Shown here in pieces: positions 21,113 to 39,498 of a stretch of 52,438 bases of DNA. The notes below the pieces were generated by a model. That model saw only the letters and a program-made list of their open reading frames with translations. It was not told where the DNA came from and did not search any database. The stretch is from NCBI GenBank assembly GCA_945870505.1, contig CAMBSN010000010.1, forward strand, positions 1-52,438, read 5' to 3'. The stretch's first letter is position 1, and each line of letters begins with the position of its first letter. The stretch is from Candidatus Kuenenia stuttgartensis (GTDB lineage Bacteria > Planctomycetota > Planctomycetia > Pirellulales > UBA1268). The position numbers were made by a program, and so were the translations under genes.

Positions 21113-21362
21113 CGTAGCACAGGTTCCCACGTAGCACAGGTTTTCAACCTGTGTGTCTTCCCAGTTCGCACTGGGCTCGGGGCTACCCATGCCCGTCGCC
21201 GGACGCTCGCTGCGGCCCTCCGGGCCTGCGCTCGCTCGATGCTGACTTCGCTCCGCCATCCATGGCTGCGCTCGTCAGCAACGCCGGCTCCCGGGCACGG
21301 GCAGCCCCTCGCTGCCTCCCGTAGCACAGGTTTTCTCGTAGCACAGGTTTTCAACCTGTGTG
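21113..21362. repeat. REP cluster with composite structured core (copy 1)
   Basis: Left flank 21113-21155 and right flank 21320-21362 are 43-bp direct repeats, each made of a half REP (GTAGCACAGGTT) followed by a full GTAGCACAGGTT/AACCTGTG palindrome. The core 21156-21319 is about 75-80 percent similar by eye to 31088-31250 (inverted) and 39313-39472. It contains an imperfect hairpin whose outer arms are GCTGAC (21241-21246) and GTCAGC (21274-21279). Fills the convergent gap between hpnH and the ROK kinase gene; nothing else is seen there. Confidence 0.8.
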
Positions 21363-21401
21363 CCTGTCACCGCCTCGCACGGCTCGAGCGCGGTGGGTTG
21401 C

Positions 21402-22427
21402 TCAAAGGCCGCGTTCGCGCACCATCCGGGCGGCGTCGAGGGCGGCGCCTCTCGCCCCCGCCGAATCGCCGGTGGGCATCACGTGGATCGGCAGGCTCGC
21501 CTGCTCCTCCCGCTGCGACGGCATGCCCGCGCGGATCTCGTCGAGAAACCAGCGGCGAAACTCGTCGGATGTCTCCACGGCACCGCCACCGACGATCAAC
21601 GCGTCGGGATCGAACACGTTCACCATCTCGTCGAAGAACAGGCCGAGGGCATGGGCCTGCACGCGGAAGATGTCGCGGCACATCGTGTCGCCCCGCTCCG
21701 CCAGGCCGCGGACCTTCTTCGCCGCATCGCCGATCTCGTCGGCCGCGAGGGGATGCCCGGGGTTCCGGGCCAGGAAGTGTGGCAGCAGCGTGCGGCGGAT
21801 CGCCGTCAGCGAGCAGAGCGACTCGAGATCGCCGGTGCGTCCGCAGTTGCAGGCCGGCACGGCACCCTCCATCCCGGGCACCGATTCGTGGGGGATCAGC
21901 ACGTGGCCGAGTTCGCCGCCGAAGCCGTTGCGGCCGGTGACCACGCGGCCGCCGACGATCACGCCGCCGCCCAGGCCTGTGCCGATGATCGCCGACACGC
22001 TCGTGGCCGTGTTGTCGGACCCGAAGATCGACACGTGGCCCCAGAGGGCCGCGGCATTGCCATCGTTGAGGTAGGTCACCGGCAGGCCGAGCCGCGACTC
22101 CAGGCCGGCCCGCATGTCGTAGCCGGCCCACGCCGGGTGGACGAAGTTCGTCGAGCCCTTCTTGCTGAGCACCCCCGACCCGCTCGCCGGGCCGGGCGTG
22201 TCGAGCCCGACGGCCACGAGTTTCGCCCGGTCAACGCCCGCCTTGCCGCACGCCATCTCGAGGCCGTCGGCGATCTGCCCGAGACACACCGCGGGGCCCT
22301 CGACGCTCCGGGCCGGATGCTCACACAGCCCGTCGATGAGGAATTCGCCCCGTTCGTCGAGAAACGTGTAGTTGATGGCGGTGCCGCCGAGGTCTACGCC
22401 GGCGACCACCTTCTCTGCGGGTGACAT
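21402..22427 (-). CDS. ROK family sugar kinase (glucokinase-like)
   Basis: 341 aa. GVDLGGT near residue 10 is the ATP phosphate-binding loop; LNDGNAAALWG carries the sugar-binding Asn/Asp, GTGLGGGVIV and GFGGELGH follow, and CNCGRTGDLES is the structural zinc motif of ROK kinases. The family phosphorylates glucose, fructose, N-acetylhexosamines or acts as repressor; no N-terminal HTH is present, so this is an enzyme. Monocistronic by spacing (51 nt after the sufE stop region on the same strand). Converges on hpnH across a REP cluster. Confidence 0.9.
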   Translation of the reverse strand: MSPAEKVVAGVDLGGTAINYTFLDERGEFLIDGLCEHPARSVEGPAVCLGQIADGLEMACGKAGVDRAKLVAVGLDTPGPASGSGVLSKKGSTNFVHPAWAGYDMRAGLESRLGLPVTYLNDGNAAALWGHVSIFGSDNTATSVSAIIGTGLGGGVIVGGRVVTGRNGFGGELGHVLIPHESVPGMEGAVPACNCGRTGDLESLCSLTAIRRTLLPHFLARNPGHPLAADEIGDAAKKVRGLAERGDTMCRDIFRVQAHALGLFFDEMVNVFDPDALIVGGGAVETSDEFRRWFLDEIRAGMPSQREEQASLPIHVMPTGDSAGARGAALDAARMVRERGL

Positions 22428-22478
22428 AACTCGGTCCTTTCTGGGGTGGTCTGGTCGTTGGGAGTGGGAGGGGGCGTC

Positions 22479-22913
22479 TCAGCCCGCGGCGTGCTCTGCG
22501 AAGCCCCGCTTCACGCGGGCGACGATCGCCCTCAGGCCGCGGGTGCGGAGGATGCCGAGCACGTCGGCAAGCCCCATGCGATCGAGAATGTCGTCGGAAA
22601 TCGTGGCGACATCGGCCACTGGCCGGCCGTTGATCGCCTCGGCGAGGATGGCCACGAAGCCCTTCACGGTCGGCGCCTCGGGGGCCACCTCGGCGACGAG
22701 TTGGGCGGAGCCACCGGCCGACTCCGTCCAGAGAAACACGGACGTCTGGCACTCGTGCACGCGGCGATCTTCGACCGCCTTCCGCGCCGCGTACTCCGCC
22801 GAGAGCGCCGGCAGCCCGTGGGCGAAATCGACGAGGAGTTCGAGCTTCTCGCGCGCGTCAAGGTCAGCGAACTCGCCGACCAGTTCATCGAGGCGTTCTC
22901 GTACGCTCGCCAT
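22479..22913 (-). CDS. sufE: SufE family Fe-S cluster assembly protein
   Basis: SufE accepts sulfane sulfur from the cysteine desulfurase SufS and passes it to the Suf scaffold. 144 aa from ATG 22913. The acceptor Cys lies in RVHECQTSVFLW, the family hallmark; the N-terminal ERLDELVGEFADLDAREKLELL region and GFVAILAEAINGRP match as well. It starts 2 nt after the rhodanese stop, so the two sulfur-transfer proteins are surely co-transcribed. sufS and sufBCD are not in the window. Nearby Fe-S enzymes IspH, HpnH and QueE are possible clients. Confidence 0.92.
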   Translation of the reverse strand: MASVRERLDELVGEFADLDAREKLELLVDFAHGLPALSAEYAARKAVEDRRVHECQTSVFLWTESAGGSAQLVAEVAPEAPTVKGFVAILAEAINGRPVADVATISDDILDRMGLADVLGILRTRGLRAIVARVKRGFAEHAAG

Positions 22914-22915
22914 GG

Positions 22916-23812
22916 TCAGGCGTGCATCGCCGGCGTTGACGTCACGGCCACGGCACCGCCCGGCTCCGCGCCCTTGGCGATCGGCACGCGGACGGCGTTG
23001 CCCCACTCGAGCCACGAGCCGTCATAGTTTTTCACGTTACCGAACCCGAGTAGGTAGGTGAGCACGAACCACGTCAGGCTCGACCGCTCGCCGATCCGGC
23101 AGTAGGCGATCGTCGGGGACCGCCGCTTCATCTTGAGCTCCTTAATGTAGAGCTTTTCGAGATCCTTGGCCGACTTGAACGTGCCGTCGTCGTTGCAGTT
23201 CATCGGCCAGGGAACGTTTTGAGCGCCGGGGATGTGCCCGCCACGGATGGCGCCCTCATTGGGGTAGTCGGGCATGTGCATCCGCTCGCCGCGGTATTCC
23301 TCCGGGCTGCGGACGTCGAGCAACTGCTTGCCGGCCTTCGCGTGCCTGAGCACCTCGTCACGGAGGGCCCGGATCGATCCGTCCTGCTCCTGCGCGGTGT
23401 AGTGGGCCTGCGGAGACGAGACCCGCTCGTTCGACCAGGCCCGGCCGTCCAGTTCCCACCGCTTCCGGCCGCCGTCCATGACCCGGCAGTCCTTGTGACC
23501 GTAGAGCTTGAAGACCCAGAAGGCGTAGCAAGCCCACCAGTTGTTCTTGTCGCCGTAGAAAACCACGGTCGTGTCGTTGGAGATGCCCCGCTCGGCGCAG
23601 AGCTTCTCAAACGCGGCCCGGTCGATGTAGTCGCGGACGATGGGACACTGCAGGTCGACCGCCCAGTCGATCTCGACGGCGCCGGGGATGTGACCCTGCG
23701 TGTAGAGCGCCCGGTCTTCGTCCGATTCGACGATCCGCACCTGCGGGTCGGAGAGATGCTCGGCCACCCACTCGGTTGAGACGAGCACTTCGGGATGGAT
23801 GTAGTCGGGCAT
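22916..23812 (-). CDS. Thiosulfate sulfurtransferase, tandem rhodanese
   Basis: 298 aa with two rhodanese domains (about 8-130 and 150-285). The C-terminal active loop is YCRIGERSS with the catalytic Cys, the form found in actinobacterial CysA-type sulfurtransferases. The N-terminal domain has FYGDKNNWW, with no Cys, so it is non-catalytic. The GHIPGA motif occurs in both domains. ATG 23812 has GAGGAG upstream; a longer frame is rejected. Probably feeds sulfane sulfur to SufE, encoded 2 nt downstream; that link is inference from the operon. Divergent from ettA, with a 170-nt spacer holding TAGGAT (23922-23927) as possible ettA -10. Confidence 0.92.
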
Positions 23813-23982
23813 GGGCGACTCCTCGTCGGCGGTCTGAAATTGGCGATGCGAAGACCTCGATTCATCGTAGACCATGCCCCCCGGGCCAGCAACGGCCCCT
23901 CATGCCGCGCCCGGGTTTTGCTAGGATCGTGACGCGGCAGTTTTCCCGTCCCATTCCCCTTTGTGCGAGCACCGTTCATCCG

Positions 23983-25656
<1,674 letters not shown>

Positions 25657-25683
25657 TTCGTGCAGGCGACATCCTGCCGACCA

Positions 25684-25752
25684 CGTAGCACAGGTTGTCA
25701 ACCTGTGTGAGTCCGCGTCGCGGCTCTCGTAGCACAGGTTTTCAACCTGTGG
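25684..25752. repeat. REP cluster, two palindromes
   Basis: Two direct copies of CGTAGCACAGGTT-NN-AACCTGTG (25684-25709 and 25728-25752). They lie in the convergent gap between ettA and the GH25 gene, without the 160-bp core. The remaining about 95 nt to the GH25 stop show nothing else. Confidence 0.8.
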
Positions 25753-25848
25753 CTGATGAACGCCGCGAGGGGATCCCGGCCTGGTGCACCACTGGGCATC
25801 GGCTCCCCCCACGCCTCACGGCGTTGGGCTTCTGCGATGCCTTGCGGC

Positions 25849-26562
25849 TCAGGCGAGCCGCTGGGCGTCGAGCGAGCCGCGGTCGCCGCGCCAGGCGTCG
25901 CGGTCCACGTTGCCCCGCACGCCGGGCACCGATCCCTTCGACGTGTATTGCCAGAACGACCACCGCTCCCACGCCTTCGGCACGTACTTCGCCGGTTCGT
26001 CCACATAGGCCGCTAGCCAGAGCGGACAGTCGAGCGCGCCGCCGTCGCCCGCTTCGTCGCGCCAGAAGTAGAGGCCCGTGTAGATGATCGGCGGCGCCCC
26101 CATCCGCTCGCGGAGCCGCGCCACGAACGACTCCGTCCAGGCTCGGACCTCAGGCGGCTTCAGGCCGTCGTCCTTTTCCAGATCGAGCACGATCGGCAGG
26201 TCGCCCGACACCGGCCGCACCGTGTCAAAGACGAAGTCGGCCTGGCCAGCGGCGGAGCTTCCGGGTCGACCGAAGTGGTAGGCCCCGCGGATCAGCCCCG
26301 CCGCGGCGATCGCCGGCCAGTTGGCGGCAAACTTCGCATCGACGTGCGCCAGGCCCTCGGTCGCCTTGCAGAAGCAGAACTCGATTCCCGCCTCCGCGAC
26401 CTTCACAAAATCGACATCCCGCTGCCAGCGGGAGACGTCGATGCCCTGGATCGGGAACGTGCCGCCCCGGGCCGACGTCTCGTCTGCCACCGCGAGGCGC
26501 GTCACCGAGGCGAGACCCGACGCGAGCAGCGTCCGCCGCGACAATGCTATCGGGGTCTTCAC
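25849..26562 (-). CDS. GH25 family lysozyme (exported)
   Basis: 237 aa. The N-terminus LSRRTLLASGLASV with a following Ala-rich stretch is a twin-arginine-like signal peptide. Mature residues start GIDVSRWQ with the GH25 catalytic Asp, then FCFCKATEG, GAYHFGRP, and the DxE pair in IVLDLEKDD, all in the order expected for Chalaropsis-type muramidases, which cleave the MurNAc-GlcNAc bond. The end WSFWQYTSKGSVPGV is also typical. It probably remodels or degrades peptidoglycan in the periplasm. Six nt separate it from the ispH stop, so it may be co-transcribed downstream of ispH. Confidence 0.92.
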   Translation of the reverse strand: MKTPIALSRRTLLASGLASVTRLAVADETSARGGTFPIQGIDVSRWQRDVDFVKVAEAGIEFCFCKATEGLAHVDAKFAANWPAIAAAGLIRGAYHFGRPGSSAAGQADFVFDTVRPVSGDLPIVLDLEKDDGLKPPEVRAWTESFVARLRERMGAPPIIYTGLYFWRDEAGDGGALDCPLWLAAYVDEPAKYVPKAWERWSFWQYTSKGSVPGVRGNVDRDAWRGDRGSLDAQRLA

Positions 26563-26568
26563 GCCGGT

Positions 26569-27522
26569 TTACGCCATCGGCAGCCGGGCTGCCGATGCGG
26601 CTGCCCGTAGTTCCTTCGGGAGCGGGAAGTAGACGTCTTCCTCGCGGATCGACCGCTCCTCAACTTCGGCGCCGAAGCGGTCCCGCAGCCACGTCAGGCA
26701 GTCCTGCACGACGGCCTCGGGAGCGCTCGCGCCGGCCGTGATCACCACCGTCTCCTCGCCGTGGAACCACGTAGGGTCGATTTCTCCGGCGCCGTCGATG
26801 AGTTGGGCAGGGATGCCGCGCTCGCGGGCCAGTTCGGCGAGCCGCTGGCTGTTGGAGCTGTTTTGGCTGCCAAGCACGATCACGAGGTCGGCATCCTCCG
26901 AGAGCAGGCGGACGGCCTCCTGGCGATTCTGCGTCGCGTAGCAGATGTCATCCTTTGGCGGCCCGACGATCTGCGGAAACCGCTCTCTCAGCCGGGAGAT
27001 GATTCGCGAGGCGTCGTCCACCGAGAGCGTGGTCTGTGTGAGATAGGCCAGCTTGTCGTCCGTGCCAAACGGCAGCGCGTCGACGTCCTCCGGCGACTCC
27101 ACCAGCGTGAACGCCGCCGGCGCCTGGCCGATCGTGCCGATCACCTCGTCGTGCCCCTCGTGGCCGATGAGCACGATCCGGTAACCCTGCGAGGCGTACT
27201 TGATTGCCTCGAGGTGCACCTTGGTGACGAGCGGGCAGGTCGCGTCGATCGCCCGCAGGCGCCGCTCGGCCGCCACCCGCCGGATCTCCGGCGCTACTCC
27301 GTGGGCTGAGAACAGCAGGACTGCGCCCTCCGGCGCTTCTTCCACGGAGTCGACGAACACCACGCCCTGGCGGATGAAGCGGTCGACTACGTGCCTGTTG
27401 TGGACGATCTCGTGAAACACGTAGATCGGCGTGCCGTGGAGGCGGATCGCCGTCTCCAGCGTCTCGATGGCCATGTTGACGCCGGCACAGAAGCCGCGGG
27501 GACTGGCGAGGAGGATTTTCAT
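26569..27522 (-). CDS. ispH: 4-hydroxy-3-methylbut-2-enyl diphosphate reductase
   Basis: Last step of the MEP pathway, giving IPP and DMAPP with a 4Fe-4S centre. 317 aa from ATG 27522 (MKILLASPRGFCAGV). The three cluster Cys are in GFCAGV (C12), DATCPLVTKVH and DDICYATQNRQ; HEIVHN and the SQNSSNSQRL diphosphate-binding segment are present. A longer in-frame start (27693) would run into the divergent hpnC region and is rejected. It is divergent from hpnCDE, so isoprenoid supply and squalene synthesis share a 152-nt control region. Confidence 0.96.
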   Translation of the reverse strand: MKILLASPRGFCAGVNMAIETLETAIRLHGTPIYVFHEIVHNRHVVDRFIRQGVVFVDSVEEAPEGAVLLFSAHGVAPEIRRVAAERRLRAIDATCPLVTKVHLEAIKYASQGYRIVLIGHEGHDEVIGTIGQAPAAFTLVESPEDVDALPFGTDDKLAYLTQTTLSVDDASRIISRLRERFPQIVGPPKDDICYATQNRQEAVRLLSEDADLVIVLGSQNSSNSQRLAELARERGIPAQLIDGAGEIDPTWFHGEETVVITAGASAPEAVVQDCLTWLRDRFGAEVEERSIREEDVYFPLPKELRAAASAARLPMA

Positions 27523-27674
27523 CGGGCGTTCCAGCTCGGGGCGGCAGCAGGCGGGAGGCAACCGCCATCGGGTACAACGGTTGGGACCGCCGAAGCATCC
27601 TAGTGGAGGCGGCGAAACGCGGCCAGACAGTCCGGTCGCCGGGGCTCCCCGCCGCGGCGTGAGGGAGCAGGTGC

Positions 27675-28640
27675 ATGCAGGTTGGGACACCACACACGGC
27701 GCCGTTGCCGCGGCGCGGCCAGGCGGCCGCTCGCGACGGCGTGGCGTGGCGGCTGGCCGATCTGCCGGCGGGCGACGACCTCGCCGCTGCCGAGGCCTTC
27801 TGTCGGGCCGTCGCCCAACGCCACTACGAAAACTTCACCGTCGCAACCCGCCTCGTGCCGGCGCAGCTCCGCCAGCACCTCGCCAACGTCTACGCCTTCG
27901 CCCGCTGGGCCGACGACCTCGGCGACGAATCGGCGTCTCCGACGGAGGCCACTGTCGCGCTCGCGGCATGGCGCGAGGAACTCGACGCCTGCTTCGCCGG
28001 CCGGCCGCGGCACCCGGTGTTTCTCGCGCTCGCCGACACGATCCGCCGCACCGGCCTCGACCGCGCGCCCTTCGCCGACCTAATCGCCGCGTTCGAGCAG
28101 GACCAGCGACAGACGCGGTATGCGACCCGCGACGACCTCGTCGCCTACTGCCGCCACTCGGCCGATCCTGTCGGCCGGATCGTGCTGGCGCTGGAGGGCT
28201 GTCGCGACCTGCAGTTGGTGGCGATGTCCGACTCGATCTGCACCGGGCTGCAGCTCGTCAACTTCTGGCAGGACGTTCGTCGCGACCGGCTCGCCGGCCG
28301 CGTCTATCTTCCGCTCGACGACATGACGCGGCACGGCGTCGATGAGGCAATGCTCGATGCGCCGTCGGCATCCCCTGCCCTGCGGCGGCTCCTGGCCGTC
28401 GAGGTGGAGTGGGCCCGCCGCTGCTTCGCCGCGGGGGCGCCGCTCGCCGATGCCGCCCCCGCCGTGCTCCGGCCCGCGATCGAGATGTTCATCGGTGGCG
28501 GGCGGGCTGTTGCCGACGCCATCGAGCAAGCGGGTTTCGACACGCTCTCCCGGCGGCCGACGGTGGGCCGCTGGGCGAAGATGCGGCTTGCGGCCCGCGC
28601 CTGGTGGCGATCTTGCGTGGCCGGCGGGGGCCGCGCATGA
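27675..28640 (+). CDS. hpnC: Squalene synthase HpnC (hydroxysqualene-forming branch)
   Basis: 321 aa, trans-isoprenyl diphosphate synthase fold. First Asp-rich motif FARWADDLGDE near 75-85 and second NFWQDVRRD near 196-204. With HpnD and HpnE it makes squalene from farnesyl diphosphate via presqualene diphosphate and hydroxysqualene; HpnC performs the conversion to hydroxysqualene in characterised systems. ATG 27675 follows GAGGGAG. The first 30 residues are a low-complexity extension. The stop overlaps the hpnD start (ATGA). Confidence 0.94.
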   Translation: MQVGTPHTAPLPRRGQAAARDGVAWRLADLPAGDDLAAAEAFCRAVAQRHYENFTVATRLVPAQLRQHLANVYAFARWADDLGDESASPTEATVALAAWREELDACFAGRPRHPVFLALADTIRRTGLDRAPFADLIAAFEQDQRQTRYATRDDLVAYCRHSADPVGRIVLALEGCRDLQLVAMSDSICTGLQLVNFWQDVRRDRLAGRVYLPLDDMTRHGVDEAMLDAPSASPALRRLLAVEVEWARRCFAAGAPLADAAPAVLRPAIEMFIGGGRAVADAIEQAGFDTLSRRPTVGRWAKMRLAARAWWRSCVAGGGRA

Positions 28641-29500
28641 CCACGCTGGCGGCCGATCATGCGGCGTGCGCGGCGATCCTGAGGCGATCGGGCTCGAGCT
28701 TCGCCATGCCGATCGCACTACTGCCGGAGGCGAAACGCCGCGGCACGACCGCGCTCTACGCCTTTTGCCGGGTGGCCGACGACATCGTGGACGACGCCGC
28801 CGACCGCGAAGCCGCCGCCGCGGGGTTGGCTGCCTTTTCCACCTCCACCGACGCCGCGCTCTCGGGCCTCCCGGTCGATGATCCCGTGCTCCGCGCCGTC
28901 ACCGACACGGTCCGCCGCTACGCGGTGCCCGAGCAGTACCTACGGGACATCCTCGCGGGCGTGCGGATGGACCTCCACCACAGTCGTTATGAGACCCCCG
29001 CCGAACTCGAGCTCTACTGCAGCCGCGTGGCAAGCGCCGTAGGCATCGCCGCCATCCACGTCTGGGGATTCACCGACCCCAGCGCGATCGGCCTCGCGCA
29101 CGACTGTGGCGTTGCCTTTCAGCTGACCAACATCCTCCGCGACATTCCTGAGGATCTCGGCCGCGGCCGGGTGTACCTGCCGGAAGAGGATTTCCTGGCA
29201 TGCGGCTGCACAGTGAACGACCTCCTGGCGGGTCGGATCGGCCCGGCCTTCGCCCGGCTTGCCACGCTGGAGATCCAGCGGGCGGCGGAGAGGTTTCGAC
29301 GGGCGGCGGCGCTCGACGGCATGCTCTCCACCGACGGCCGGGGCGTGTTTCGCGCGATGTTCGGCGTCTATCGGACGCTGCTCCGGGCGGTGGGCCGCCA
29401 GGGAGTTGGCATCTTCACGGCGAAGGTGCGGGCTTCCAAGCCGCGGCTCATGGCGGCGGCGCTGGCCACGCTCGCCTGCGGGACGAAGGTGTGGCGATGA
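28637..29500 (+). CDS. hpnD: Presqualene diphosphate synthase HpnD
   Basis: 287 aa. The first Asp-rich motif YAFCRVADDIVDD lies near 41-53 and the second, NILRDIPED with GRGRVYLP, near 165-185. In characterised systems HpnD condenses two farnesyl diphosphates to presqualene diphosphate. Start and stop both overlap the neighbouring genes by ATGA (hpnC at 28637-28640; hpnE at 29497-29500), so hpnCDE is a tightly coupled operon. HpnC and HpnD are told apart here by gene order and by the family motifs around the Asp pairs. Confidence 0.94.
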   Translation: MTTLAADHAACAAILRRSGSSFAMPIALLPEAKRRGTTALYAFCRVADDIVDDAADREAAAAGLAAFSTSTDAALSGLPVDDPVLRAVTDTVRRYAVPEQYLRDILAGVRMDLHHSRYETPAELELYCSRVASAVGIAAIHVWGFTDPSAIGLAHDCGVAFQLTNILRDIPEDLGRGRVYLPEEDFLACGCTVNDLLAGRIGPAFARLATLEIQRAAERFRRAAALDGMLSTDGRGVFRAMFGVYRTLLRAVGRQGVGIFTAKVRASKPRLMAAALATLACGTKVWR

Positions 29501-30930: not shown

Positions 30931-31364
30931 CAACACAGGTTGCCAACCTGTGCCGGATGTGCCGCAGGTTGAAAACCTGCGCTACGAATCGAGTCTGTAG
31001 CGTAGGTTTTTAACCTGCGTTGCTCCATGACACAGGTTGAAAACCTGTGCTACGAGAGGCACACACAGGTTGAAAACCTGTGCTACGAGAGGCAGCGAGG
31101 GGCTGCCCGTGCCCGGGAGCCGGCGTTGCTTTCTCCGCAAAGCCAGGATGGCAAAGCGGAGAAAGCATCGAGCGAGCGGAGGGCAGGATGCCCGTAGTGA
31201 GCGTCCGGCGACGGGCATGGGTAGCTCCGAGCCTCATGCGAACCGGGAAGACACACAGGTTGGAAACCTGTGCTACGAGAGGCACACACAGGTTGAAAAC
31301 CTGTGCTACGAGAGACCGTGAGCTGGCGCGGGATCCTGGTGCAGGTTGACAACCTGCACCTACG
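30931..31364. repeat. Largest REP cluster: eight palindromes plus structured core (copy 2, inverted)
   Basis: Palindromes of the CAGGTT-NNN-AACCTG type centre near 30943, 30972, 31014, 31043, 31074, 31265, 31297 and 31350; most end GCTACG, so they point to the minus strand. The core 31088-31250 is the inverted homologue of 21156-21319. Its hairpin is perfect: 31128-31138 with 31156-31166 (11 bp), an AAA/AAA internal loop, then GCCA/TGGC. The region fills the 465-nt convergent gap after hpnE. The final palindrome overlaps the last codons of the gene at 31360: that gene's TAG stop is the TAG of the REP GTAG. Confidence 0.82.
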
Positions 31365-32136
31365 TGGGGAGCTTCGAGCCAGGCCAGACGCGGATCGCCT
31401 CCACGACCGCATCGGCGAGTGTGCGGGAGTCGATGACCGACCGCTCCCAGAGTCGCCAGAGATCGACGGCGGCGGCCGGCCGCCGGCCGACCGCACCGAC
31501 CACGGCACCGAGACGACGCAGGGACGACTGCGGTGCCGATAACGTCGCCACCTCGCCCGGCAGCGTCTCGTGGGCGTTGTCGGAGATCACGCGGACCGCC
31601 GCGCAGGGCAGGCCGGCCGCGGCCGCCACCTCGGCGACCGCGAAGGTCTCCATGTCAACGAGCTGGCTGCCAGTTCGCGCCGCGAGGCTCTGCTTCATCT
31701 CGACGGTGGCGGCCACGGCATCCACCGTCACGATCGTCAGCGGCTCGGAACGCGGACGCGGCGGTGCCGCGAGCGTGATCCGCCGGGCCGCGTGGTCCAT
31801 CACAGCAACCTCCGGACGCACGGCGCTGCCCCGCCGCAGGTCGGGATCAAGGCCGCCAGCGAAGCCGGCCGAGACAATCAGCCTCGGATGGTGGCCATCG
31901 ATCAGCTGGCGGACCGCCGTGGCGGCCGCGATGCGGCCCACGCCGGAGATGCACCAGGCGATCCGCCTACCGACGGCAACGCCGGTTGAAAATGCGAACT
32001 GGGCTCCCTGCACTTCGCGACGATCCTCGATCAGTCGCTCGAAGGCATCGGCCTCCACGGACAGGGCGAAGACGATGCCAACGTCGACGGCGGACGACGG
32101 CAGGCGAGCAGTGTCACTGACGGCGGGAGGAGGCAT
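31360..32136 (-). CDS. hpnG: Nucleosidase/phosphorylase family protein, probable hopanoid HpnG
   Basis: 258 aa, PNP/MTAN fold. FALSVEADAFERLI opens the fold after a 16-residue extension; SAGFAGGLDPDLRRG and LVDMETFAVAEVA are the nucleoside-binding motifs, and RVISDNAHE ends the active-site region. The GGLDP-type loop recalls HpnG, which strips adenine from adenosylhopane to give ribosylhopane. MTA/SAH or futalosine nucleosidase are alternatives. The hopanoid genes on the facing strand favour HpnG. ATG 32136 follows GGAGGAGG. It starts 22 nt after the Cys-rich gene, so it is probably in the porin operon. Confidence 0.65.
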   Translation of the reverse strand: MPPPAVSDTARLPSSAVDVGIVFALSVEADAFERLIEDRREVQGAQFAFSTGVAVGRRIAWCISGVGRIAAATAVRQLIDGHHPRLIVSAGFAGGLDPDLRRGSAVRPEVAVMDHAARRITLAAPPRPRSEPLTIVTVDAVAATVEMKQSLAARTGSQLVDMETFAVAEVAAAAGLPCAAVRVISDNAHETLPGEVATLSAPQSSLRRLGAVVGAVGRRPAAAVDLWRLWERSVIDSRTLADAVVEAIRVWPGSKLPT

Positions 32137-32158
32137 GGCGACGGAGTCCTCGCCCCGC

Positions 32159-32605
32159 TCACCACCACGAGGCGCAGCGATGCAGGAAGGCGACCGGGTT
32201 CCACCAGCATAACCGTGATTCGTCGTGGCCGGCGGCACAGTCGCAGGGCTCGACGGGCACCATCTTCACCTCGTACTTCGGCACCCGCTCGACCTTCTCT
32301 GGGCCGTCAACCTTGTAGACCTTCTTCTTGACGATCACGTCGCCGCACGGTGGATGGCAGCGGCACTCGGGTGGCGGCGTGTGCCACGGGTCGCGACCAC
32401 GGACGCAGGTGTATTCGCACTTCATCGAGTAGACGGGCTTTAACGACTTCTTCTCGTCCCAGGTGCCACTGCAGGCCGGGATGCACTCCCGGCAGCCGCC
32501 GGTGCATCCCGTGCAGCCGGCGCGGGCGCGGCTCGTCGCCACGGCCGCCCCGGCGAGCGTGGCGAGCAGGGCGATGGCACGTATGTGGTTCGTGGTGCGT
32601 CGCAT
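32159..32605 (-). CDS. Small Cys-rich secreted protein, unknown function
   Basis: 148 aa. A signal peptide (MRRTTNHIRAIALLATLAG to about residue 30, ending ARA) precedes a mature domain of about 118 residues with 14 Cys, many in CxxC-like spacing: GCTGCTGGCRECIPAC, MKCEYTC, PECRCHPPC, EPCDC. The middle has a Lys/Val-rich segment (VIVKKKVYKV ... VPKYEVKMVPVEP). The pattern suggests disulfide bonding or metal binding outside the cytoplasm; I know no characterised homologue. Gaps of 25 nt from the porin and 22 nt to hpnG place it in one operon. Confidence 0.75.
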   Translation of the reverse strand: MRRTTNHIRAIALLATLAGAAVATSRARAGCTGCTGGCRECIPACSGTWDEKKSLKPVYSMKCEYTCVRGRDPWHTPPPECRCHPPCGDVIVKKKVYKVDGPEKVERVPKYEVKMVPVEPCDCAAGHDESRLCWWNPVAFLHRCASWW

Positions 32606-32630
32606 GAGAACGTCTCCGTGCGGCCGAGGG

Positions 32631-34526
32631 TCAGAAGTCGAACGCGAGCCGGGTGCCGAAGCCGTGGATGCAGCCGCTGCCGTCGTAGCTGGGTCCCGGA
32701 ACAATGCTCCCATCTTTTTGCTTCTTGAACGGCGTGCTCGAGAAGTCGCGATAGGTGAAGTCGTAGTTGAAGTAGACGCGGGCGTTGGGGTTGAGCAGCC
32801 AGTTGAGGCCGAGCGTGCAGCCGTTGAGCACGCCACCGTTCACCTCGCCGTCGCTCAGGCAGAGGTAGTTGTAGCGCACGCCCAGCTGCCAGGCACCTTC
32901 GCTCACGCTCAGCCTCCGCCCCGAGCCCCCGCCGCGAACGGCGTAGAAGTTGTTGTGCGGAACAGGGCGGTCGAAGCGGTATTCGATCTTTGAGTAGGTG
33001 CGGCTTTCGCCGGTGAGGAAATAGAGCACTTCCGCATAGCCGCTCTGAAAGTAGACCGTGCCCACCTTGGTGCCCGGGGCAGGCTGGTAGCCGTTGGTCA
33101 CCAGCGGGCCGGCGCTGGTGGTGCTGGCGTTGTAGAGCCAGGAGCCGAAGTACTCCGATTGGAACGACCACGGCCCGTTGTTGCCGACGAACTCCAGCCC
33201 GATCATGTTCTGCCACGAGCCCTGGAGCAGGCCGGAGTCGGCGTAGATCGAGTTGAGCGGGCCGGGCGGGCCGTTACGAATCGAGCCGCGGCTCCGGAAC
33301 CGCACCGCGTTGATCGGGTCGCCGGTGGGCAGGCCCGTTTCGTTGTCGAACGACGTGTACTGCCGCCGCGGCTCCATCGTCCGGCCGGAGATGGCGAGGT
33401 GGAGCAGTTTGCGGCCTTCGTCCTCGAACACCGGAAGAATAATCAGCCGGCCGACCGTCATGCTGCCACCGCTGGAGTTGTTAAAGCCGAACGGATTGGT
33501 GGCGTTCTTGAACTCGCCGACCTGCCAGGCGACGTCACCCTCCTCGTTGCTGTTGAGGATCTGAATGCCGGGTAGAAAGCCGTTATTGAAGGGCCCCTCG
33601 AAGGCGTCTTGGCTGAACGACCGCTCCATGAAGTTGAGCCAGCGGCTGCTCGTGAGATGCTCGTAGCCGAAGGGGTCTTTTTGGTTGCCGACGCGGACCG
33701 TGCCCAGGATGGGGATCTCCCGGAGCTGAAGCCAGAGGTCGGTGACGGCGGTCAGCGGGCCGGCGTCACGTTCCGTGGGGTAGGTCTCGTTGTTGACATT
33801 GATCTGATTGACGAAGTCGTATTCCGCCGCCCAGTCGTAGAACTCGTACATCCGCCCCTCCATGCGGAACCGGGCACGGCGGAGGGCGACGGTGTCGGCG
33901 AGTGTCGGATCGAGGCCACCCTGGTTCGGCGCCTGATTGCCGGGGCCGGGCCCGGCCGTGAAGGCGACGGCATCGACCTGCGTGCGACCGCCGATCTTGA
34001 TTCTGAAGTCCTTCTGCTTCGACTCGGCGTGATAGCCCGCCGCCCACTTCGAACTGAGATTTGTATCGCTGCCGATCTCGTACGGTTCCGGCGGCTTCTT
34101 CTCGTCCGTGTTGGCGTCCTTGTCCGTCTTCGAATCCTTCTTGTCAGCTTCCTTGTCGGGGTTCGTAGCCTCGGCACCTGTGGCAGCCTTCGCGGACGGA
34201 GCGGGCAGCGGTTCGGCCGCCTTCTGAGTTTCGAGTTCCTGGATCCGCTGCTCGAGCGCCGTCATCCGTTGGCGGTCCGCCTCGACGGCTTCGGAGACCT
34301 CGGCGAGCGAGCCAAAGTCTGCTGCCACGCTTGGAATCGCGAGCGGAGCCGCATCGCTCGTGTCGGCCACGACGAAGATCGCATCCGCGGCCCAGCCCAG
34401 GGCCGGCGTCGCGACAAACGTGATCGCGGTCAGCAGAATCGTGAGTCGGAAGTGGCGGAAAACACCCACGAGTCTGTCTGCCGTGCCCAGATTGCCGGAT
34501 CGCAGGGTCCGTTCATCTTCATGCAA
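32631..34526 (-). CDS. Outer-membrane porin, phosphate-selective O/P type, with coiled-coil stalk
   Basis: 631 aa. After an export signal (LTILLTAITFVATPALGWA) comes a short heptad coiled coil (about 80-100, TALEQRIQELETQ), an acidic/Lys-rich linker (about 115-150) and a beta-barrel region from about 170 to the C-terminal Phe (RLAFDF, a typical barrel end). FRIKIGGRTQVDA, FEGRMYEFYDWAAEYDF-like strands and YAEVLYFLTGESR fit the Porin_O_P family. The coiled coil may trimerise or bind the cell wall, inferred from other stalked porins. The frame opens with TTG 34526 after GAGGGTGG; GTG 34469 (19 codons later) would give a more usual signal peptide. Confidence 0.85.
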   Translation of the reverse strand: MHEDERTLRSGNLGTADRLVGVFRHFRLTILLTAITFVATPALGWAADAIFVVADTSDAAPLAIPSVAADFGSLAEVSEAVEADRQRMTALEQRIQELETQKAAEPLPAPSAKAATGAEATNPDKEADKKDSKTDKDANTDEKKPPEPYEIGSDTNLSSKWAAGYHAESKQKDFRIKIGGRTQVDAVAFTAGPGPGNQAPNQGGLDPTLADTVALRRARFRMEGRMYEFYDWAAEYDFVNQINVNNETYPTERDAGPLTAVTDLWLQLREIPILGTVRVGNQKDPFGYEHLTSSRWLNFMERSFSQDAFEGPFNNGFLPGIQILNSNEEGDVAWQVGEFKNATNPFGFNNSSGGSMTVGRLIILPVFEDEGRKLLHLAISGRTMEPRRQYTSFDNETGLPTGDPINAVRFRSRGSIRNGPPGPLNSIYADSGLLQGSWQNMIGLEFVGNNGPWSFQSEYFGSWLYNASTTSAGPLVTNGYQPAPGTKVGTVYFQSGYAEVLYFLTGESRTYSKIEYRFDRPVPHNNFYAVRGGGSGRRLSVSEGAWQLGVRYNYLCLSDGEVNGGVLNGCTLGLNWLLNPNARVYFNYDFTYRDFSSTPFKKQKDGSIVPGPSYDGSGCIHGFGTRLAFDF

Positions 34527-34590
34527 TCGCTACCACCCTCTTTATCGGCAAGGTCCATGGACCTCGTGAGTGTGGCGGTTCTGCAAGCCG

Positions 34591-36069
34591 TCAGCGGGCG
34601 GCAGGCTGGGCTGTTTGGCTGGCCAGGGCAGGCCGCTCGCTGTGGAGGGAACGCAGCACGGACGGAGAGGCGGCGGGAAACCGCACCGTGACCGTGGTTC
34701 CCTCGCCGACCCTGCTGGCGATCCCGATCGTGCCCCCGCACGAGTCCGCGATCGATCGGCAGATCGAGAGCCCCAGGCCCCCGCTCCTGATTCCCGAACC
34801 GTGAGTCCGCGCCGGGTCGGCCTTGAAGAATCGATCAAAGACGTGTTCGAGATCGCGGGGAGCGATCCCCATGCCGGTATCCGCCACCTCAAGGGTCACC
34901 GTCTCACCAGCGGCGACGGTCCGCACCTCGACGGCACCACCCGAGGGCGTGAAGCGGATGGCGTTGTCGAGCAGGTTGCTCAGCAGGCGACGCAGATCGA
35001 CGGGGTTTGCGAGTGTCTCGGCGGGCTGATCGGCAGAGATGGTGAGCGTGATCCCCCGCTCCTCGGCAACCCCAGAGAACATCGCCACCGCCTGTCGGGC
35101 AACCAGCGTGAGATCGATGCCCAGGTGATCGCGTGGCTCCGCGGGATTTCCCGACTCCGCCAGCAGGAGCATGTCGTTGGCAACCTTCGAGAGGTGTCGC
35201 GCTGCGTCGAGCATGTCGGAGAGCGTTTCCTGCTGGTCGAGTGGCAGGTCGTCGCGGGCCAGCGCCACCTCCATCGAACTCTGCAGGGCGGCGAGGGGGC
35301 CGCGAAGCTCGTGCGCCGCGTCGGCGACGAACTGCTCCTGCTTGTCGACGTGCTGAGCCACCGAGTCGAGCAGGCCGTTGATGGTGCGGGCGAGCAGGTC
35401 GAGTTCGTCGCTTGTGCCGCGGACCGGCAGGCGATCGCCCAGGCGGCTTGGGCTGAGCCGCTCGGCGGTACGGAGCATCGCTCCCATCGGTTGTGTGGCC
35501 CGGCCGGCGAGCCAGTAGGCGGCGAACGGGGTGATCAGCGTAAGCCCGAGGCCCATCCCCGTCAGCAGGCGAATCAGGCCGGCGAGACTGTCATCGAGCC
35601 CCGTCGTGTAGGTGCCCACCCGCACGAGATACGACGGTCCGGAGTCACGATCAATGCGATTGCGGACGTAGCGGTAGTGGCCAACCTGGCGGACCACCTC
35701 CACCTGTTCGACGTCCTTGGGAGGGTAGTTCACGACATCCGCGGGGCAGTGGTCGCTCTTCCAAACAGTCGCCCCGTCGGGGGTGAGGAGATGGAGAAAC
35801 CAGCCCCGTTCCTCGTGGCTGGCGGCTTTGCGGCGGAGTTCCGCCACGAGCGGTGCCGCATCTCCGCTGAGTTCCTGCACGGCCAGAGCGATCTCGCGAG
35901 AGGCGGCACGGAGTTCCGCATCGCAGTCGGCGTAGAGTGCCGAGCGGGCGGAGAACCGCACGATGAGCAGCGTGGCCGTCGTGAGCAGGATCACGACGGC
36001 CGTATTCCAGAGCGTCAGCCTGGTGCGGAGCGACGTGGCGCGAATCCACTCAATCAGTGGCGAGTGCAT
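34591..36069 (-). CDS. Membrane sensor histidine kinase (OmpR-partner type)
   Basis: 492 aa. Membrane segment 1 at about 18-39, a periplasmic sensor of about 120 residues, membrane segment 2 at about 165-187, HAMP (about 190-240), HisKA with AAHELRGPLAALQ, and HATPase_c with N-box LLSNLLDNAIRF, VADTGMGI and GGLGLSICRSIA. It overlaps the response regulator by 20 nt (36050-36069). The sensed signal is unknown. The porin follows 64 nt downstream, which suggests that porin expression is a target, by analogy with other porin-linked two-component systems. Confidence 0.93.
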   Translation of the reverse strand: MHSPLIEWIRATSLRTRLTLWNTAVVILLTTATLLIVRFSARSALYADCDAELRAASREIALAVQELSGDAAPLVAELRRKAASHEERGWFLHLLTPDGATVWKSDHCPADVVNYPPKDVEQVEVVRQVGHYRYVRNRIDRDSGPSYLVRVGTYTTGLDDSLAGLIRLLTGMGLGLTLITPFAAYWLAGRATQPMGAMLRTAERLSPSRLGDRLPVRGTSDELDLLARTINGLLDSVAQHVDKQEQFVADAAHELRGPLAALQSSMEVALARDDLPLDQQETLSDMLDAARHLSKVANDMLLLAESGNPAEPRDHLGIDLTLVARQAVAMFSGVAEERGITLTISADQPAETLANPVDLRRLLSNLLDNAIRFTPSGGAVEVRTVAAGETVTLEVADTGMGIAPRDLEHVFDRFFKADPARTHGSGIRSGGLGLSICRSIADSCGGTIGIASRVGEGTTVTVRFPAASPSVLRSLHSERPALASQTAQPAAR

Positions 36070-36718
36070 AGCCGCGGCCCCGGATCGTTTGGATCATCGA
36101 TGCGTCGCGGTCCTTGTCGATCTTGCCGCGGAGCCGGTTGATGTGGACCTCGATCACGTTGGTGGGGCCGTCCCAGTCGAAGCCCCAGACGTGCTCGCAG
36201 AGCATCTTGCGGGTCACAACCTGTCCTTGGAACCGCATCAGCAGCTCCAAAATGTTGAACTCCGTGGGTGTGAGATCGACGGGCCTGTCATCGAGAGTTG
36301 CCCGACGGTTGGCGAGGCTCAGGTGGAGACTTCCGGCGGCGAGCGTCATGGCCGGCTTGTCTCCGGCCCGGCGGTGCACGGCCTCGATCCGCGCCAGCAA
36401 CTCGTCCATCGCGAACGGCTTGACGAGATAGTCGTCGGCGCCCGCCTCGAAGGCCTGCAGTTTCTCGCCGACGAGGCCTCGCGCCGTGAGCACGATCACG
36501 GGGGTGCGGACCCCGCCAGCCCGCGCCGCCTTGAGCACCGAGAGGCCGTCTTCCCCCGGCAGCATGAGGTCGAGGATCACCACGTCGCTGGCGATCAACG
36601 CCTCCTTGCCTGCCACGGAGCCGTCCGGAAACCACCGGCACTCATGGCCGGCGGCTGAGACCGCCGCGCTGACCGCCTTGGCGATGATCGGATCGTCCTC
36701 GACGATGGCAACTTGCAT
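36050..36718 (-). CDS. OmpR/PhoB-type response regulator
   Basis: 222 aa. The receiver has the acidic pair VEDDP, phospho-acceptor Asp50 in VVILDLMLPGEDG, VLTARG and Lys in YLVKPF. The C-terminal winged helix reads LTPTEFNILELLMRF, MLCEHVWGFDWDG, VIEVHINRLRGKID and ends IRGRGYALATD. GGAGGAG lies just before ATG 36718. It stands upstream of, and overlaps, its kinase. On the upstream side an 81-nt gap separates it from guaA; a TATCCT-like box is visible there on the minus strand. Confidence 0.94.
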   Translation of the reverse strand: MQVAIVEDDPIIAKAVSAAVSAAGHECRWFPDGSVAGKEALIASDVVILDLMLPGEDGLSVLKAARAGGVRTPVIVLTARGLVGEKLQAFEAGADDYLVKPFAMDELLARIEAVHRRAGDKPAMTLAAGSLHLSLANRRATLDDRPVDLTPTEFNILELLMRFQGQVVTRKMLCEHVWGFDWDGPTNVIEVHINRLRGKIDKDRDASMIQTIRGRGYALATD

Positions 36719-36799
36719 CCGGCTCCTCCACAGAAGGGCGATCTGCCGCCCTCACCTCCTGGAAGTTTCTTAGGATACCGTCTGCCCGGCGTCCGGGCG

Positions 36800-38391
36800 C
36801 TATTCCCACTCGATCGTGGCGGGTGGCTTCGAGGAAATGTCGTACACCACGCGGTTCACCCCCCGGACCTCATTGATCACGCGGGTGGAGATCCGGGCGA
36901 GCAGGTCGTAGGGGAGATGGCTCCAGTCGGCCGTCATGAAGTCCTCCGTTTCGACCGCGCGGACGGCGAGGGTGTCTTCATAGGTGCGGGCGTCGCCCAT
37001 GACGCCGACGCTCTGCACGGGCAGGAGCACGGCAAAGGCCTGTGACACCTTCCGCATCAACCCGGCGCGGTCGAGTTCCTCCAGCACGATGGCGTCGGCG
37101 TCGCGGAGCGTGTCGAGCCGGGGTTTCGTGACCTCGCCGAGGCAGCGGACGGCGAGGCCGGGGGCTGCAACTCGGCCTGCCAGACGATCCGCTCCGGCAG
37201 GCCGAGTTGCAGCCCGAGGTGTCGCACCTCGTCCTTGAACAGATCGCGAAGCGGCTCGAAGAGTTCGAACTGCAGGTCGTCGGGCAGGCCGCCGACGTTG
37301 TGGTGGAGTTTGATGGTGGCGGCGGGGCCGTCGGCCGCCGCGCCGCTCTCGATCACGTCGGGGTAGAGCGTGCCCTGGGCCAGGAACCGGGCGTCTTTCA
37401 CCTTGGCCGCCTCCGCCGCGAAGCAATCGACGAACGCCTTGCCGATCCGCCGCCGCTTCTCCTGCGGATCGGTGACGCCCGCAAGCACGCCCAGAAACAG
37501 TTCCTCGGCCGCCACGACGTGGAGGTCGGTCTTGAAGTGCCTGGTGAACTCGTCGATCACCGTCGCGGCTTCGCCTTTCCGCAGCAGGCCGTTGTCAACG
37601 AGGATGCAGGAGAGCTGGTCGCCGATCGCTCGGCTGAGCAGGGCAGCCACGACCGCCGAGTCAACGCCTCCCGACAGCCCGCAGATCACGCGGTCGCCAC
37701 CGACGCGGCGGCGGACATCGGCGATCATCGACTCCGCGAAGTCGTCGAGCCGCCAGGTGCCGTGGCAGCCGCAGGCCTTGCTGAGGAAGTTGGCCAGGAT
37801 CGTGCCGCCCGCCGGCGTGTGGGTCACCTCGGGATGGAACTGCAGCCCGAAGACGGGGAGCGACTTGTGGCGGACGGCGGCGAACGGGCAGGTGGCCGTG
37901 CGGGCCAGTGGCACGAACTCCGCCGCGATGCCGTCGACCTGATCGCCGTGGCTCATCCAGACCTCGGTCCGCCCTGGCACGCCCGCGAACAGCGAGTCGG
38001 CCTCCACGACTTCGCACTCCGACCGCCCATATTCGCGGGCCGCTGCCCGGCCGACGCGGCCGCCGAGTGCGTCGCAGGCGAGCTGCATGCCGTAGCAGAT
38101 GCCGAGCACCGGGATGCCGAGGCGGAAGATCGCGGGATCGCACCGCGGCGCGCCTTCGTCGTACACGCTCGCCGGGCCGCCGGAGAGGATGATGCCCCGT
38201 GGGGCCAACTCGCGGATCCGCGCCGCGGTGATGTCGTGGCGGACGATCTCGCAGTAGACGTGCTGCTCGCGGACGCGGCGGGCGATCAGCTGGGCGTATT
38301 GCGAGCCGAAGTCGAGCACGAGCACACGCTCGGCCTGCTGGCCGGTGGCGGGCTGCTCGGGGCGTGCGGGAGGGGACGCGGTGGGTGTCAT
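36800..38391 (-). pseudogene. guaA: GMP synthase (glutamine-hydrolysing), frameshifted by a fold-back insertion
   Basis: GuaA converts XMP to GMP. The class I amidotransferase part is intact ([15 protein letters not shown] with catalytic Cys; [10 protein letters not shown]), as are the ATP pyrophosphatase loop ([16 protein letters not shown]) and, in another frame, the C-terminal dimerisation domain to [15 protein letters not shown]. Between them the conserved segment after LGLPERIVW, normally RHPFPGPG, is missing. In its place is a 20-bp inverted copy (37162-37181) of sequence lying 14 nt upstream (37196-37215), with a net loss of 1 nt. Translation from ATG 38391 would end early at 37057. 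The repaired length would be about 530 aa, the family size. Being normally essential, this suggests an assembly or read artefact, a second gene copy elsewhere, or true gene loss. Confidence 0.88.
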
Positions 38392-38499
38392 GGCGGGAAG
38401 GGGCTGGAAAAACCGCCGAGTATAGGGCGGCTGCCCCTCCGCCGCGATGCACGGTCGCCGGGCCCGGCCGCGGCGTGTTTGGGGCACCGTGGACCCTGC

Positions 38500-38505
38500 T
38501 ATAGT
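38500..38505 (+). promoter_or_regulatory. TATAGT box 7 nt before the surE start (possible leaderless mRNA)
   Basis: TATAGT (38500-38505) is followed by seven bases and ATG 38513. With normal -10 spacing, transcription would begin at or next to the A of the ATG, giving a leaderless transcript. No Shine-Dalgarno is present and there is no strong -35. Confidence 0.35.
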
Positions 38506-38512
38506 GCCGCCC

Positions 38513-39274
38513 ATGCACATCCTGCTGACCAACGACGACGGCATCTTCGCGCCCGGCATCGCGGCCATGGAACGCGGTCTTCGCGGCATAGGTGAGGTGA
38601 GCGTGGTAGCGCCCTCGACCGAGCAGAGCGGCGTGGGCCACGCCATCACGTTCCTCACGCCGCTGACGGCCAAGGAAGTGTTTGACGGAGACCGCCGCCG
38701 CGGCTGGGCCGTCGACGGCAGCCCGGCGGATGCCGTCAAGCTCGGGATCTCCGAGTTCTGTCCTCGCCGCCCCGACCTCGTCGTCAGTGGAATCAACAGC
38801 GGCCTCAATGCCGGCATCAACGTGCTCTATTCGGGCACCGTCGCCGCGGCGATCGAGGGGGCGTTCTTTGGGATCACGAGCATTGCCGTCTCGCTCGAAT
38901 GGGACGACCACGCCAATTTCGCCCGGGCCGCGGAGATCGCGGTTGACGTCATTCGCGGTCTGCTCGACCGACGGCCTCCGGCCGGAAGCCTGTTCAACAT
39001 CAACATCCCCACGCGGGCGCTCGCCGGCGTACCGGAGTTGCGGGTGGTGCCGATGAGCATCGCCCGCTACGGCGAGGCCTTCGAGCGACGAGTCGATCCC
39101 CGGGGCCGGGCCTACTACTGGGCCACGAACGAGCCCCCGCCGCCGCCGTCGCCCCGAGAATCAGACGTGACGGCGCTCGCCGCGGGGAAGGTGACGCTTA
39201 CGCCACTCGACTACGATCTCACCCACCGCGGCGGACTCGACGAACTCGCGGCGGGCCCGTGGCCGATCAGCTGA
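38513..39274 (+). CDS. surE: 5'/3'-nucleotidase SurE
   Basis: Divalent-metal nucleoside monophosphate phosphatase with exopolyphosphatase activity, active in stationary phase. 253 aa. [16 protein letters not shown] gives the metal-binding DD pair at residues 8-9; [16 protein letters not shown], the Ser39-equivalent region and [10 protein letters not shown] with the conserved Asn follow, then [14 protein letters not shown] 38513 starts directly on the first strand. Divergent from guaA (a purine-nucleotide gene), so a shared nucleotide theme is possible. Followed by a REP cluster. Confidence 0.95.
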
Positions 39275-39287
39275 TCTCGCCGGCCCT

Positions 39288-39498
39288 CGTAGCACAGGTT
39301 TTCAACCTGTGTCTTGCCATCGCGGCTGCTCGGGGCTACCCGTGCCCGTCGCCGGACGCTCGCTGCGCCCTTCCTGGGCTTCGCTCGCTCGATGCCGACT
39401 TCGCTCCGCCATCCATGGCTGCGCTTGTCAGCAACGCCGGCTCCAGGGCAAAGGCAACCCCTCGCTGCCTCTCGTAGCACAGGTTGTCAACCTGTGTG
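39288..39498. repeat. REP pair flanking structured core (copy 3)
   Basis: Full palindromes at 39288-39312 and 39473-39498 in direct orientation enclose a core (39313-39472) homologous to 21156-21319. The hairpin arms are GCCGAC (39394-39399) and GTCAGC (39427-39432): one pair is a C-A mismatch read on plus but a G-T wobble read on minus. It is in the convergent gap between surE and the Ser/Thr kinase gene. Confidence 0.8.

What the first reader, a model, noticed from the sequence alone, without database searches (positions are those of the whole stretch)
21113..39498. Three copies of a roughly 160-bp core bounded by REPs, with stem-preserving replacement of a hairpin
Cores 21156-21319, 31088-31250 (inverted) and 39313-39472 are homologous. 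At one fixed 39-bp site (21241-21279; 31128-31166; 39394-39432) the arms are GCTGAC/GTCAGC in copy 1, GCTTTCTCCGC/GCGGAGAAAGC in copy 2 and GCCGAC/GTCAGC in copy 3. Both arms changed together, keeping or lengthening the pairing, at constant total length. A second small hairpin nearby shows the same behaviour: read on the minus strand, copy 1 has GGCCC-GGA-GGGCC and copy 2 GGGCA-GGA-TGCCC, with the loop kept. Such covariation points to a selected RNA or single-stranded DNA structure, perhaps a mobile non-coding element or an undescribed ncRNA.
Basis: seen in the sequence. Interest (0 to 1): 0.8.

Follow-up and report, generated by a model that had tools for sequence, protein, structure and literature searches.

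The report
Planctomycete intergenic palindrome with exchangeable hairpins
The three sequences are copies of a 138-letter non-coding DNA element that is scattered between the genes of this planctomycete genome in more than a hundred copies, keeps one branched fold even where its letters differ, and seems to swap whole hairpins between copies.

Summary
The element is 138 bp (21175-21312, 31095-31232, 39328-39465); the GTAG-type REPs around it are separate. This genome holds at least 142 full-length copies. Of 60 genomes searched, 34 of 37 in its family have it, 0 of 23 outside. The copies share a three-way junction: outer stem plus two hairpins. On 125 copies 96.8% of pair cells are standard pairs and 29 of 48 pairs change on both sides; in a home-made tree-based null all significant column pairs (3 of 3; 5 of 5 with more copies) are pairs of the structure. 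One strand folds better (minus for copies 1 and 3). Copies lie between genes, often convergent ones.

At some orthologous positions in relatives the outer stem stays nearly identical while hairpin 3 is replaced, both arms together (3 of 10 pairs with concordant outer stems). Among 142 own copies hairpin-3 distance is unrelated to outer-stem distance. So part of the "stem-preserving replacement" is probably exchange of ready-made hairpins between copies (inferred); selection on the fold is still needed to explain the many paired stems.

Best reading: a mobile, non-autonomous ERIC/MITE-like element, not found in Rfam or in my paper searches. Mobilising enzyme and transcription are unknown.

The parts
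21175..21312 (-). Copy 1 of the element (strand given = strand S, which folds better)
   Evidence: Covariance-model hit 146.4 bits; fold z -8.14
31095..31232 (+). Copy 2 of the element (strand S)
   Evidence: 142 bits; fold z -8.54
39328..39465 (-). Copy 3 of the element (strand S), partly decayed outer stem on plus
   Evidence: 135 bits; fold z -4.92 on S, -0.67 on plus
21241..21279 (-). Hairpin 3 of copy 1, type GCTGAC/GTCAGC
31128..31166 (+). Hairpin 3 of copy 2, type GCTTTCTCCGC/GCGGAGAAAGC
   Evidence: type seen in 9 of 142 own copies
39394..39432 (-). Hairpin 3 of copy 3, GCCGAC/GTCAGC (one G.T pair on S)
21214..21226 (-). Hairpin 2 of copy 1 (GGCCC-GGA-GGGCC on minus)
31181..31193 (+). 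Hairpin 2 of copy 2 (GGGCA-GGA-TGCCC on plus)
39367..39379 (-). Hairpin 2 of copy 3 (GCCC/GGGC arms, one mismatch)
21131..21153 (+). GTAG REP beside copy 1
   Evidence: exact pattern match
21338..21360 (+). GTAG REP beside copy 1
   Evidence: exact pattern match
31031..31086 (-). Two GTAG REPs (31031-31053, 31064-31086) beside copy 2
   Evidence: exact pattern matches
31254..31309 (-). Two GTAG REPs (31254-31276, 31287-31309) beside copy 2
   Evidence: exact pattern matches
39289..39311 (+). GTAG REP beside copy 3
   Evidence: exact pattern match
39474..39496 (+). GTAG REP beside copy 3
   Evidence: exact pattern match

Best explanation
A non-autonomous, mobile, non-coding palindromic intergenic element of one planctomycete family, of the ERIC/MITE kind. 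On one strand (S) it folds into an outer stem closed by its own inverted ends, carrying two hairpins. Shown: the fold is conserved with changes on both sides of pairs; copies are dispersed between genes, mainly downstream of them; orthologous sites with and without it exist; hairpin 3 can differ as a whole where the outer stem is conserved. Inferred: the fold is kept because an unknown mobilising enzyme or a transcript-level process acts on the folded single strand (DNA or RNA not decided); hairpins are exchanged between dispersed copies by short-tract gene conversion or strand annealing, which keeps both arms matched; REPs of the RAYT (HUH transposase) kind lie beside the core in a fixed orientation because the combination was copied together or because the core flank is a preferred target.
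For: 142 full-length own copies; 34 of 37 family genomes, 0 of 23 others. 96.8% of 5985 cells paired, 333 two-sided cells against 75.1 +/- 6.3 shuffled; significant column pairs 3 of 3 and 5 of 5 in the structure. S folds better in 140 of 142 copies; G.U on S 210 against 54 cells. 1 of 125 copies overlaps a predicted gene; 61 convergent, 4 divergent, against 4 and 18 of 51 other gaps. Sites without it in relatives. Hairpin 3 replaced with outer stem kept in 3 of 10 pairs; identical hairpin-3 modules elsewhere in the own genome for L168/L050, L217/L062 and L244/L268; hairpin-3 against left-outer-stem distance r -0.08, outer-stem halves r 0.44.
Against: No transposase tied to the core, no target-site duplication, no movement observed, no transcription data. 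For L215/L269, the cleanest swap, no identical donor hairpin was found among own copies (best 0.98 and 0.88). Tree-null test on the first 42 own copies: 0 significant. Mutation-bias control of the G.U asymmetry was mixed. Orthologous loci were mostly fetched because they hold a core, so presence and similarity are biased upward.
Confidence: 0.6

Rival explanations
1. A cis-acting RNA element selected at each locus: transcribed as the 3' end of the upstream mRNA (strand S), it stabilises the end or limits read-through between convergent genes.
For: 61 of 125 own copies lie between convergent genes. In tandem gaps S is sense in 66 of 105 copies pooled, p 0.011. In 7 concordant orthologous pairs the core differs at 25 of about 966 positions while flanks average 90.5% identity.
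Against: Own copies alone 35:25, p 0.25. Relatives lack the element at many orthologous gaps: no hit in 6 of 11 for copy 3 and 9 of 11 for copy 1, one of the latter with a half element seen by eye. Copy 3 and its G005 ortholog are 88% identical, no more than their flanks. Convergent excess is also seen for pneumococcal repeats and IS elements and was read there as tolerance of parasites (PMC3049150, passages).
Confidence: 0.2
2. Covariation without selection on the fold: palindrome arms are copied onto each other by template switching in replication, so both arms change together by mutation alone.
For: 77 of the inferred two-sided changes on single branches go directly from one Watson-Crick pair to another; the element is a strong palindrome.
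Against: Template switching should treat both strands alike, but wobbles favour S (114 against 31 inferred events), S folds better in 140 of 142 copies and internal loops on S are conserved GA/GA and GAA/GCA types. The wobble argument is weakened by the mixed control.
Confidence: 0.1
3. A family of trans-acting ncRNA genes.
For: Strong fold on one strand.
Against: More than a hundred divergent copies per genome, no common promoter region seen outside the core (column information near zero in relatives), no Rfam match. Not tested by expression data.
Confidence: 0.05
4. The hairpin swaps are assembly chimeras: the genomes are drafts, the named ones metagenome-assembled, and the element is a repeat.
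For: Named relatives are MAGs; the own genome is a 180-contig draft.
Against: Conserved stretches at the hairpin borders are short compared with usual assembly words (recalled). The same hairpin types recur in several genomes, and hairpin 3 is unlinked from the outer stem across 142 copies.
Confidence: 0.05

Closest known systems
ERIC / IRU / RU-1 (127-bp enterobacterial intergenic repeat)
   Same: Size, intergenic place, outer stem formed by the two ends, high copy number, no identified transposase (PMC2229807 passages; PMC2267715 passages).
   Different: ERIC is described as one long stem-loop with TSD; here a three-way junction, no TSD seen, and hairpins that vary as wholes. No sequence relation was tested beyond Rfam.
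BOX / RUP / SPRITE of pneumococcus
   Same: Small structured repeats enriched between convergent genes; BOX is modular (PMC3049150 passages).
   Different: BOX varies by number of boxB modules; here one fixed site carries alternative hairpins.
GTAG-tagged REPs and RAYTs
   Same: The bounding REPs are of this kind (GTAG plus palindrome); alternative complementary stem residues, G.T pairs and convergent location are described for REPs, also in Planctomycetes (PMC3733652 passages). A Y1 transposase gene is present.
   Different: The core itself has no GTAG foot and is 138 bp, not 20-40 bp.
Gene-conversion model for REP sequences (Higgins 1988)
   Same: Exchange between dispersed palindromes was proposed.
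   Different: Only the title was seen, in a reference list. Here single hairpins within an element appear to be exchanged at orthologous loci.

Membership tests
MITE (non-autonomous TIR element) | Short, no coding capacity, terminal inverted repeats | tested here: met
   138 bp; ends GCTCGGGGCTGCCC / GGGCAGCCCCTCGC pair
MITE (non-autonomous TIR element) | Target-site duplication | tested here: not met
   No consistent duplication in 42 own and 85 other copies; exact insertion ends may lie outside the core
MITE (non-autonomous TIR element) | A transposase whose TIRs match | not tested
   No systematic search of genes between core-like ends was made
MITE (non-autonomous TIR element) | Presence/absence at orthologous sites | tested here: met
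ERIC/IRU | Sequence homology to the ERIC family | not tested
   No direct comparison with an ERIC sequence was made
GTAG REP (bounding units) | GTAG next to a 20-40 bp imperfect palindrome in many copies | tested here: met
   340 exact copies, reversed control 0
GTAG REP (bounding units) | A RAYT flanked by the same REP | tested here: not met
   The one clear Y1 gene (L046, 70.5 bits against cut-off 80 in NCBIfam) has no such REP within its 3345-bp locus; the genome is 87% complete
Rfam family | Match at gathering score | tested here: not met
   0 matches in the window; in 6 loci the best permissive hit has E 1.2

The most novel reading that the evidence does not exclude
Hairpin 3 is an exchangeable cassette: a process acting on folded single strands (replication-fork annealing or an HUH-type enzyme) replaces whole hairpins among more than a hundred dispersed copies, so that a bacterial non-coding element diversifies at one fixed site while its fold is kept, separately from movement of the whole element.
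Probability: 0.25. Interest if true: 0.75.

Novelty: new variant of a known kind. Interest (0 to 1): 0.55.

Why it matters
It adds a high-copy structured element, with a covariance model, to a phylum where such elements are little described. It also suggests that covariation in repeat families can come from exchange of ready-made hairpins as well as from stepwise compensation. Orthologous copies make the two sources separable, which bears on every covariation test done on repeats.

Tried and rejected
Rfam at gathering threshold on the window and at a permissive one on 6 loci: nothing of note. Target-site duplications: none consistent. Tree-null covariation test on the first 42 own copies: 0 significant pairs, with 4 of the top 10 pairs in the structure; later sets gave more. 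Unpaired columns as mutation-bias control for the G.U asymmetry: mixed (G to A faster than C to T, which would favour the observed asymmetry; A to G faster than T to C, which would oppose it), so the asymmetry is support, not proof. Integron attC site: considered from memory only, not tested. Paper searches; one search gave mostly unrelated papers. In the held open-access library the only relevant planctomycete paper was PMC3733652 (passages read), on REPs.

Rows dropped: 5 of 130 collected copies with large insertions or truncation before the family alignment; 7 of 142 own copies of 150 bp or more before the 135-row and 218-row alignments. Copies without a gene on both sides: 4 own and 9 others, 17 own. 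Orthologous pairs in reverse orientation were not compared by module. Shuffle z-scores used 48 of 142 copies. Four low-ranking places were not fetched. Gene calls come from a home-made codon-usage caller.
Full report
What is there. The three hairpin sites are exactly as described. A search of the window's own genome (3.35 Mb, 180 contigs, 87% complete) with copy 1 gave many dispersed copies. 42 copies were aligned first. A covariance model from 125 copies then gave 150 matches, the number of candidates the tool scored, so the true number may be higher. Fetched and deduplicated, these give 142 full-length copies and 17 partial hits. In the window only the three known copies score above 23 bits.

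Limits of the element. In relatives the listed matches to copy 1 mostly cover only query positions about 60-200, without the REPs; exceptions are mainly in G005 and G015. Column information drops sharply at both ends in other genomes. The element is therefore 138 bp and closes on itself. The REPs are a separate family: 340 exact copies, reversed control 0. In this genome REPs within 80 bp of a core lie in one orientation: 124 flanks direct (72 right, 52 left) against 3 inverted. Further short modules occur on the left (like CTGATACGGGTCACACTTGATC, 20 of 142 own copies within 6 mismatches, some with REPs as well) and on the right (like GTGTGATTCCGGAAAGGGGAGCAG, 18 of 142).

Spread. Of 60 genomes searched 34 have it: all 22 of the genus (own included), 12 of 15 others of the family, 0 of 23 of other families of the order (only 13 candidates per genome were scored). 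With the covariance model (150 candidates per genome): 148 matches in G015, 97 in G012, 65 in G018, 51 in G028, 31 in G017; 0 in G022, G023, G034 of the family and 0 in G037, G041, G052 outside it. Contig lengths suggest G015 = REEB432, G005 = ZE-3NOV15-plancto6 and G017 = AH-03may19-215, metagenome-assembled Planctomycetota.

Structure. RNAalifold gives the same three-way junction for the family and for own copies. On alignment A1 96.8% of 5985 cells pair, 29 of 48 pairs change on both sides, and 333 cells change on both sides against 75.1 +/- 6.3 in shuffles and at most 77 in slid versions. The structure was derived from these sequences, which favours it. A home-made test in the manner of R-scape (APC-corrected G; substitutions placed anew along a FastTree tree) gave 0 significant pairs for the first 42 own copies, 3 for 125 rows and 5 for 218 rows; 3 of 3 and 5 of 5 lie in the structure. 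In the 135-row own alignment 9 of the top 10 pairs lie in it.

Strand. Strand S (minus for copies 1 and 3, plus for copy 2) folds better in 140 of 142 copies; all 48 copies tested have z below -2. The window copies have z -8.1, -8.5 and -4.9 on S. Wobble pairs sit on S: 210 against 54 cells, 114 against 31 inferred events. Internal loops on S are largely GA/GA and GAA/GCA, and the hairpin-2 loop is GGA. DNA parameters also favour S, with z -5.5, -6.0 and only -1.2 for copy 3. Whether RNA or single-stranded DNA matters is not decided, and the mutation-bias control was mixed.

Location. With the home-made gene caller 1 of 125 own copies with genes on both sides overlaps a gene by more than 30 bp; 61 lie in convergent, 60 in tandem and 4 in divergent gaps, against 4 convergent and 18 divergent of 51 other gaps of 50 bp or more in the same loci. 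In other genomes 29 of 79 are convergent against 8 of 134 background gaps. In tandem gaps S is sense in 35 of 60 own copies (p 0.25) and 31 of 45 others (p 0.016).

Gain and loss. In the gap of copy 1, 2 of 11 relatives have a model hit (G021, at a contig end and inverted; G018) and 9 have none, of which G002 shows a half element by eye; in G016 and G012 the flanking genes are about 10 bp apart. In the gap of copy 3, 5 of 11 relatives have a hit: G005 (REP-REP-core-REP), G015 (two cores of another type), G010 (a core without these REPs), and G004 and G012 at contig ends; 6 have none. At L187, REEB432 lacks as one block the left module, core, REP and right module. Which state is ancestral was not reconstructed.

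Hairpin exchange. 29 core pairs at orthologous positions in the same orientation (24 own copies) were compared by module. In 10 the outer stem agrees (left at least 93%, right at least 87%); in 3 of these hairpin 3 is below 80%: L168/L050, L215/L269, L217/L062. In L168/L050 hairpin 2 differs too (75%). In L215/L269 outer stem and hairpin 2 are 97-100% identical while both arms of hairpin 3 differ and most of the loop is kept. L244/L268 is similar but falls just under the cut. L203 has 26 more bases than its counterpart in L060, in the loop of hairpin 3, with the rest 98.5% identical. An identical hairpin-3 module exists elsewhere in the own genome for L050's, L217's and L268's hairpin; for L215/L269 the best are 0.98 and 0.88. 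Among the 142 own copies hairpin-3 distance does not follow the outer stem (left r -0.08, right r 0.07, the latter reached by 66 of 500 permutations), follows hairpin 2 weakly (r 0.11), while the outer-stem halves follow each other (r 0.44). A simple measure finds 41 distinct outer stems of hairpin 3; 74.6% of copies have a stem of 6 or more pairs, against 45% when the arms come from different copies. I read this as exchange between dispersed copies; no donor event was observed, and repeated insertion of different copies at one site can explain the other, discordant pairs.

Selection or not. Exchange moves matched arms together and so inflates covariation counts. The many different paired stems must still have arisen under a demand for pairing, and strand preference and conserved internal loops do not follow from exchange. 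In 7 concordant pairs the core differs at 25 of about 966 positions while flanks average 90.5% identity, but these pairs were picked for agreement and most loci were fetched because they hold a core. Copy 3 and its G005 ortholog are 88% identical, with flanks of 92 and 84%.

Place among known things. Size, fold, location and dispersal are those of ERIC/IRU, BOX/RUP and other small bacterial palindromic repeats (PMC2229807, PMC3049150, PMC2267715; passages). The REPs fit the GTAG class known from Planctomycetes (PMC3733652, passages); E. coli TnpA-REP cuts single-stranded REP DNA at CT sites (PMC8266576, passages). No description of this element was found in the searches named under Tried and rejected.

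Noticed in passing
39518-39612: Long inverted repeat AAAACGGTGACAGCCACCTTTTG ... CAAAAGGTGGCTGTCACCGTTTT next to copy 3; by eye it resembles the inverted repeats that flank the Y1 transposase gene in L046 (AAAAAGGTGCCAGCCACC...), i.e. a likely TIR repeat of a RAYT-like gene.
   Followed up: partly
L046:1180-1878 (minus): 232-aa Y1 transposase, REP-associated type (Pfam 42.7 bits over cut-off 23; NCBIfam REP_Tyr_transpos 70.5 bits, under cut-off 80), flanked by inverted repeats and not by the REP of this genome.
   Followed up: partly
7293-7478, 25685-25751, 43880-43998: Clusters of two or three GTAG REPs in the same orientation without a core.
   Followed up: no
L068, L072, L146 and other loci of REEB432 and relatives: Another short palindrome, GGAAGCCCAATCGCGTAAGCGATGGGGGC, lies next to many cores in relatives, in the place that REPs take in this genome.
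   Followed up: no
L141, about 2300-2560: In G018 the core lies between longer inverted repeats (TGATACGGGTTACACTTGACCCTCGCGC ... GCGCGAGGATCAAGTGGGCGCCGTATGAC), perhaps the ends of a larger mobile unit.
   Followed up: partly
own genome, 7 places of 163-166 bp, e.g. G000:C29:31509-31672: Cores that are 25-28 bp longer; in L203 this is a nested palindrome (CCGATCCGCCGCAGGCGGATTGG) in the loop of hairpin 3, also seen in ZE-3NOV15 and REEB432 copies.
   Followed up: partly
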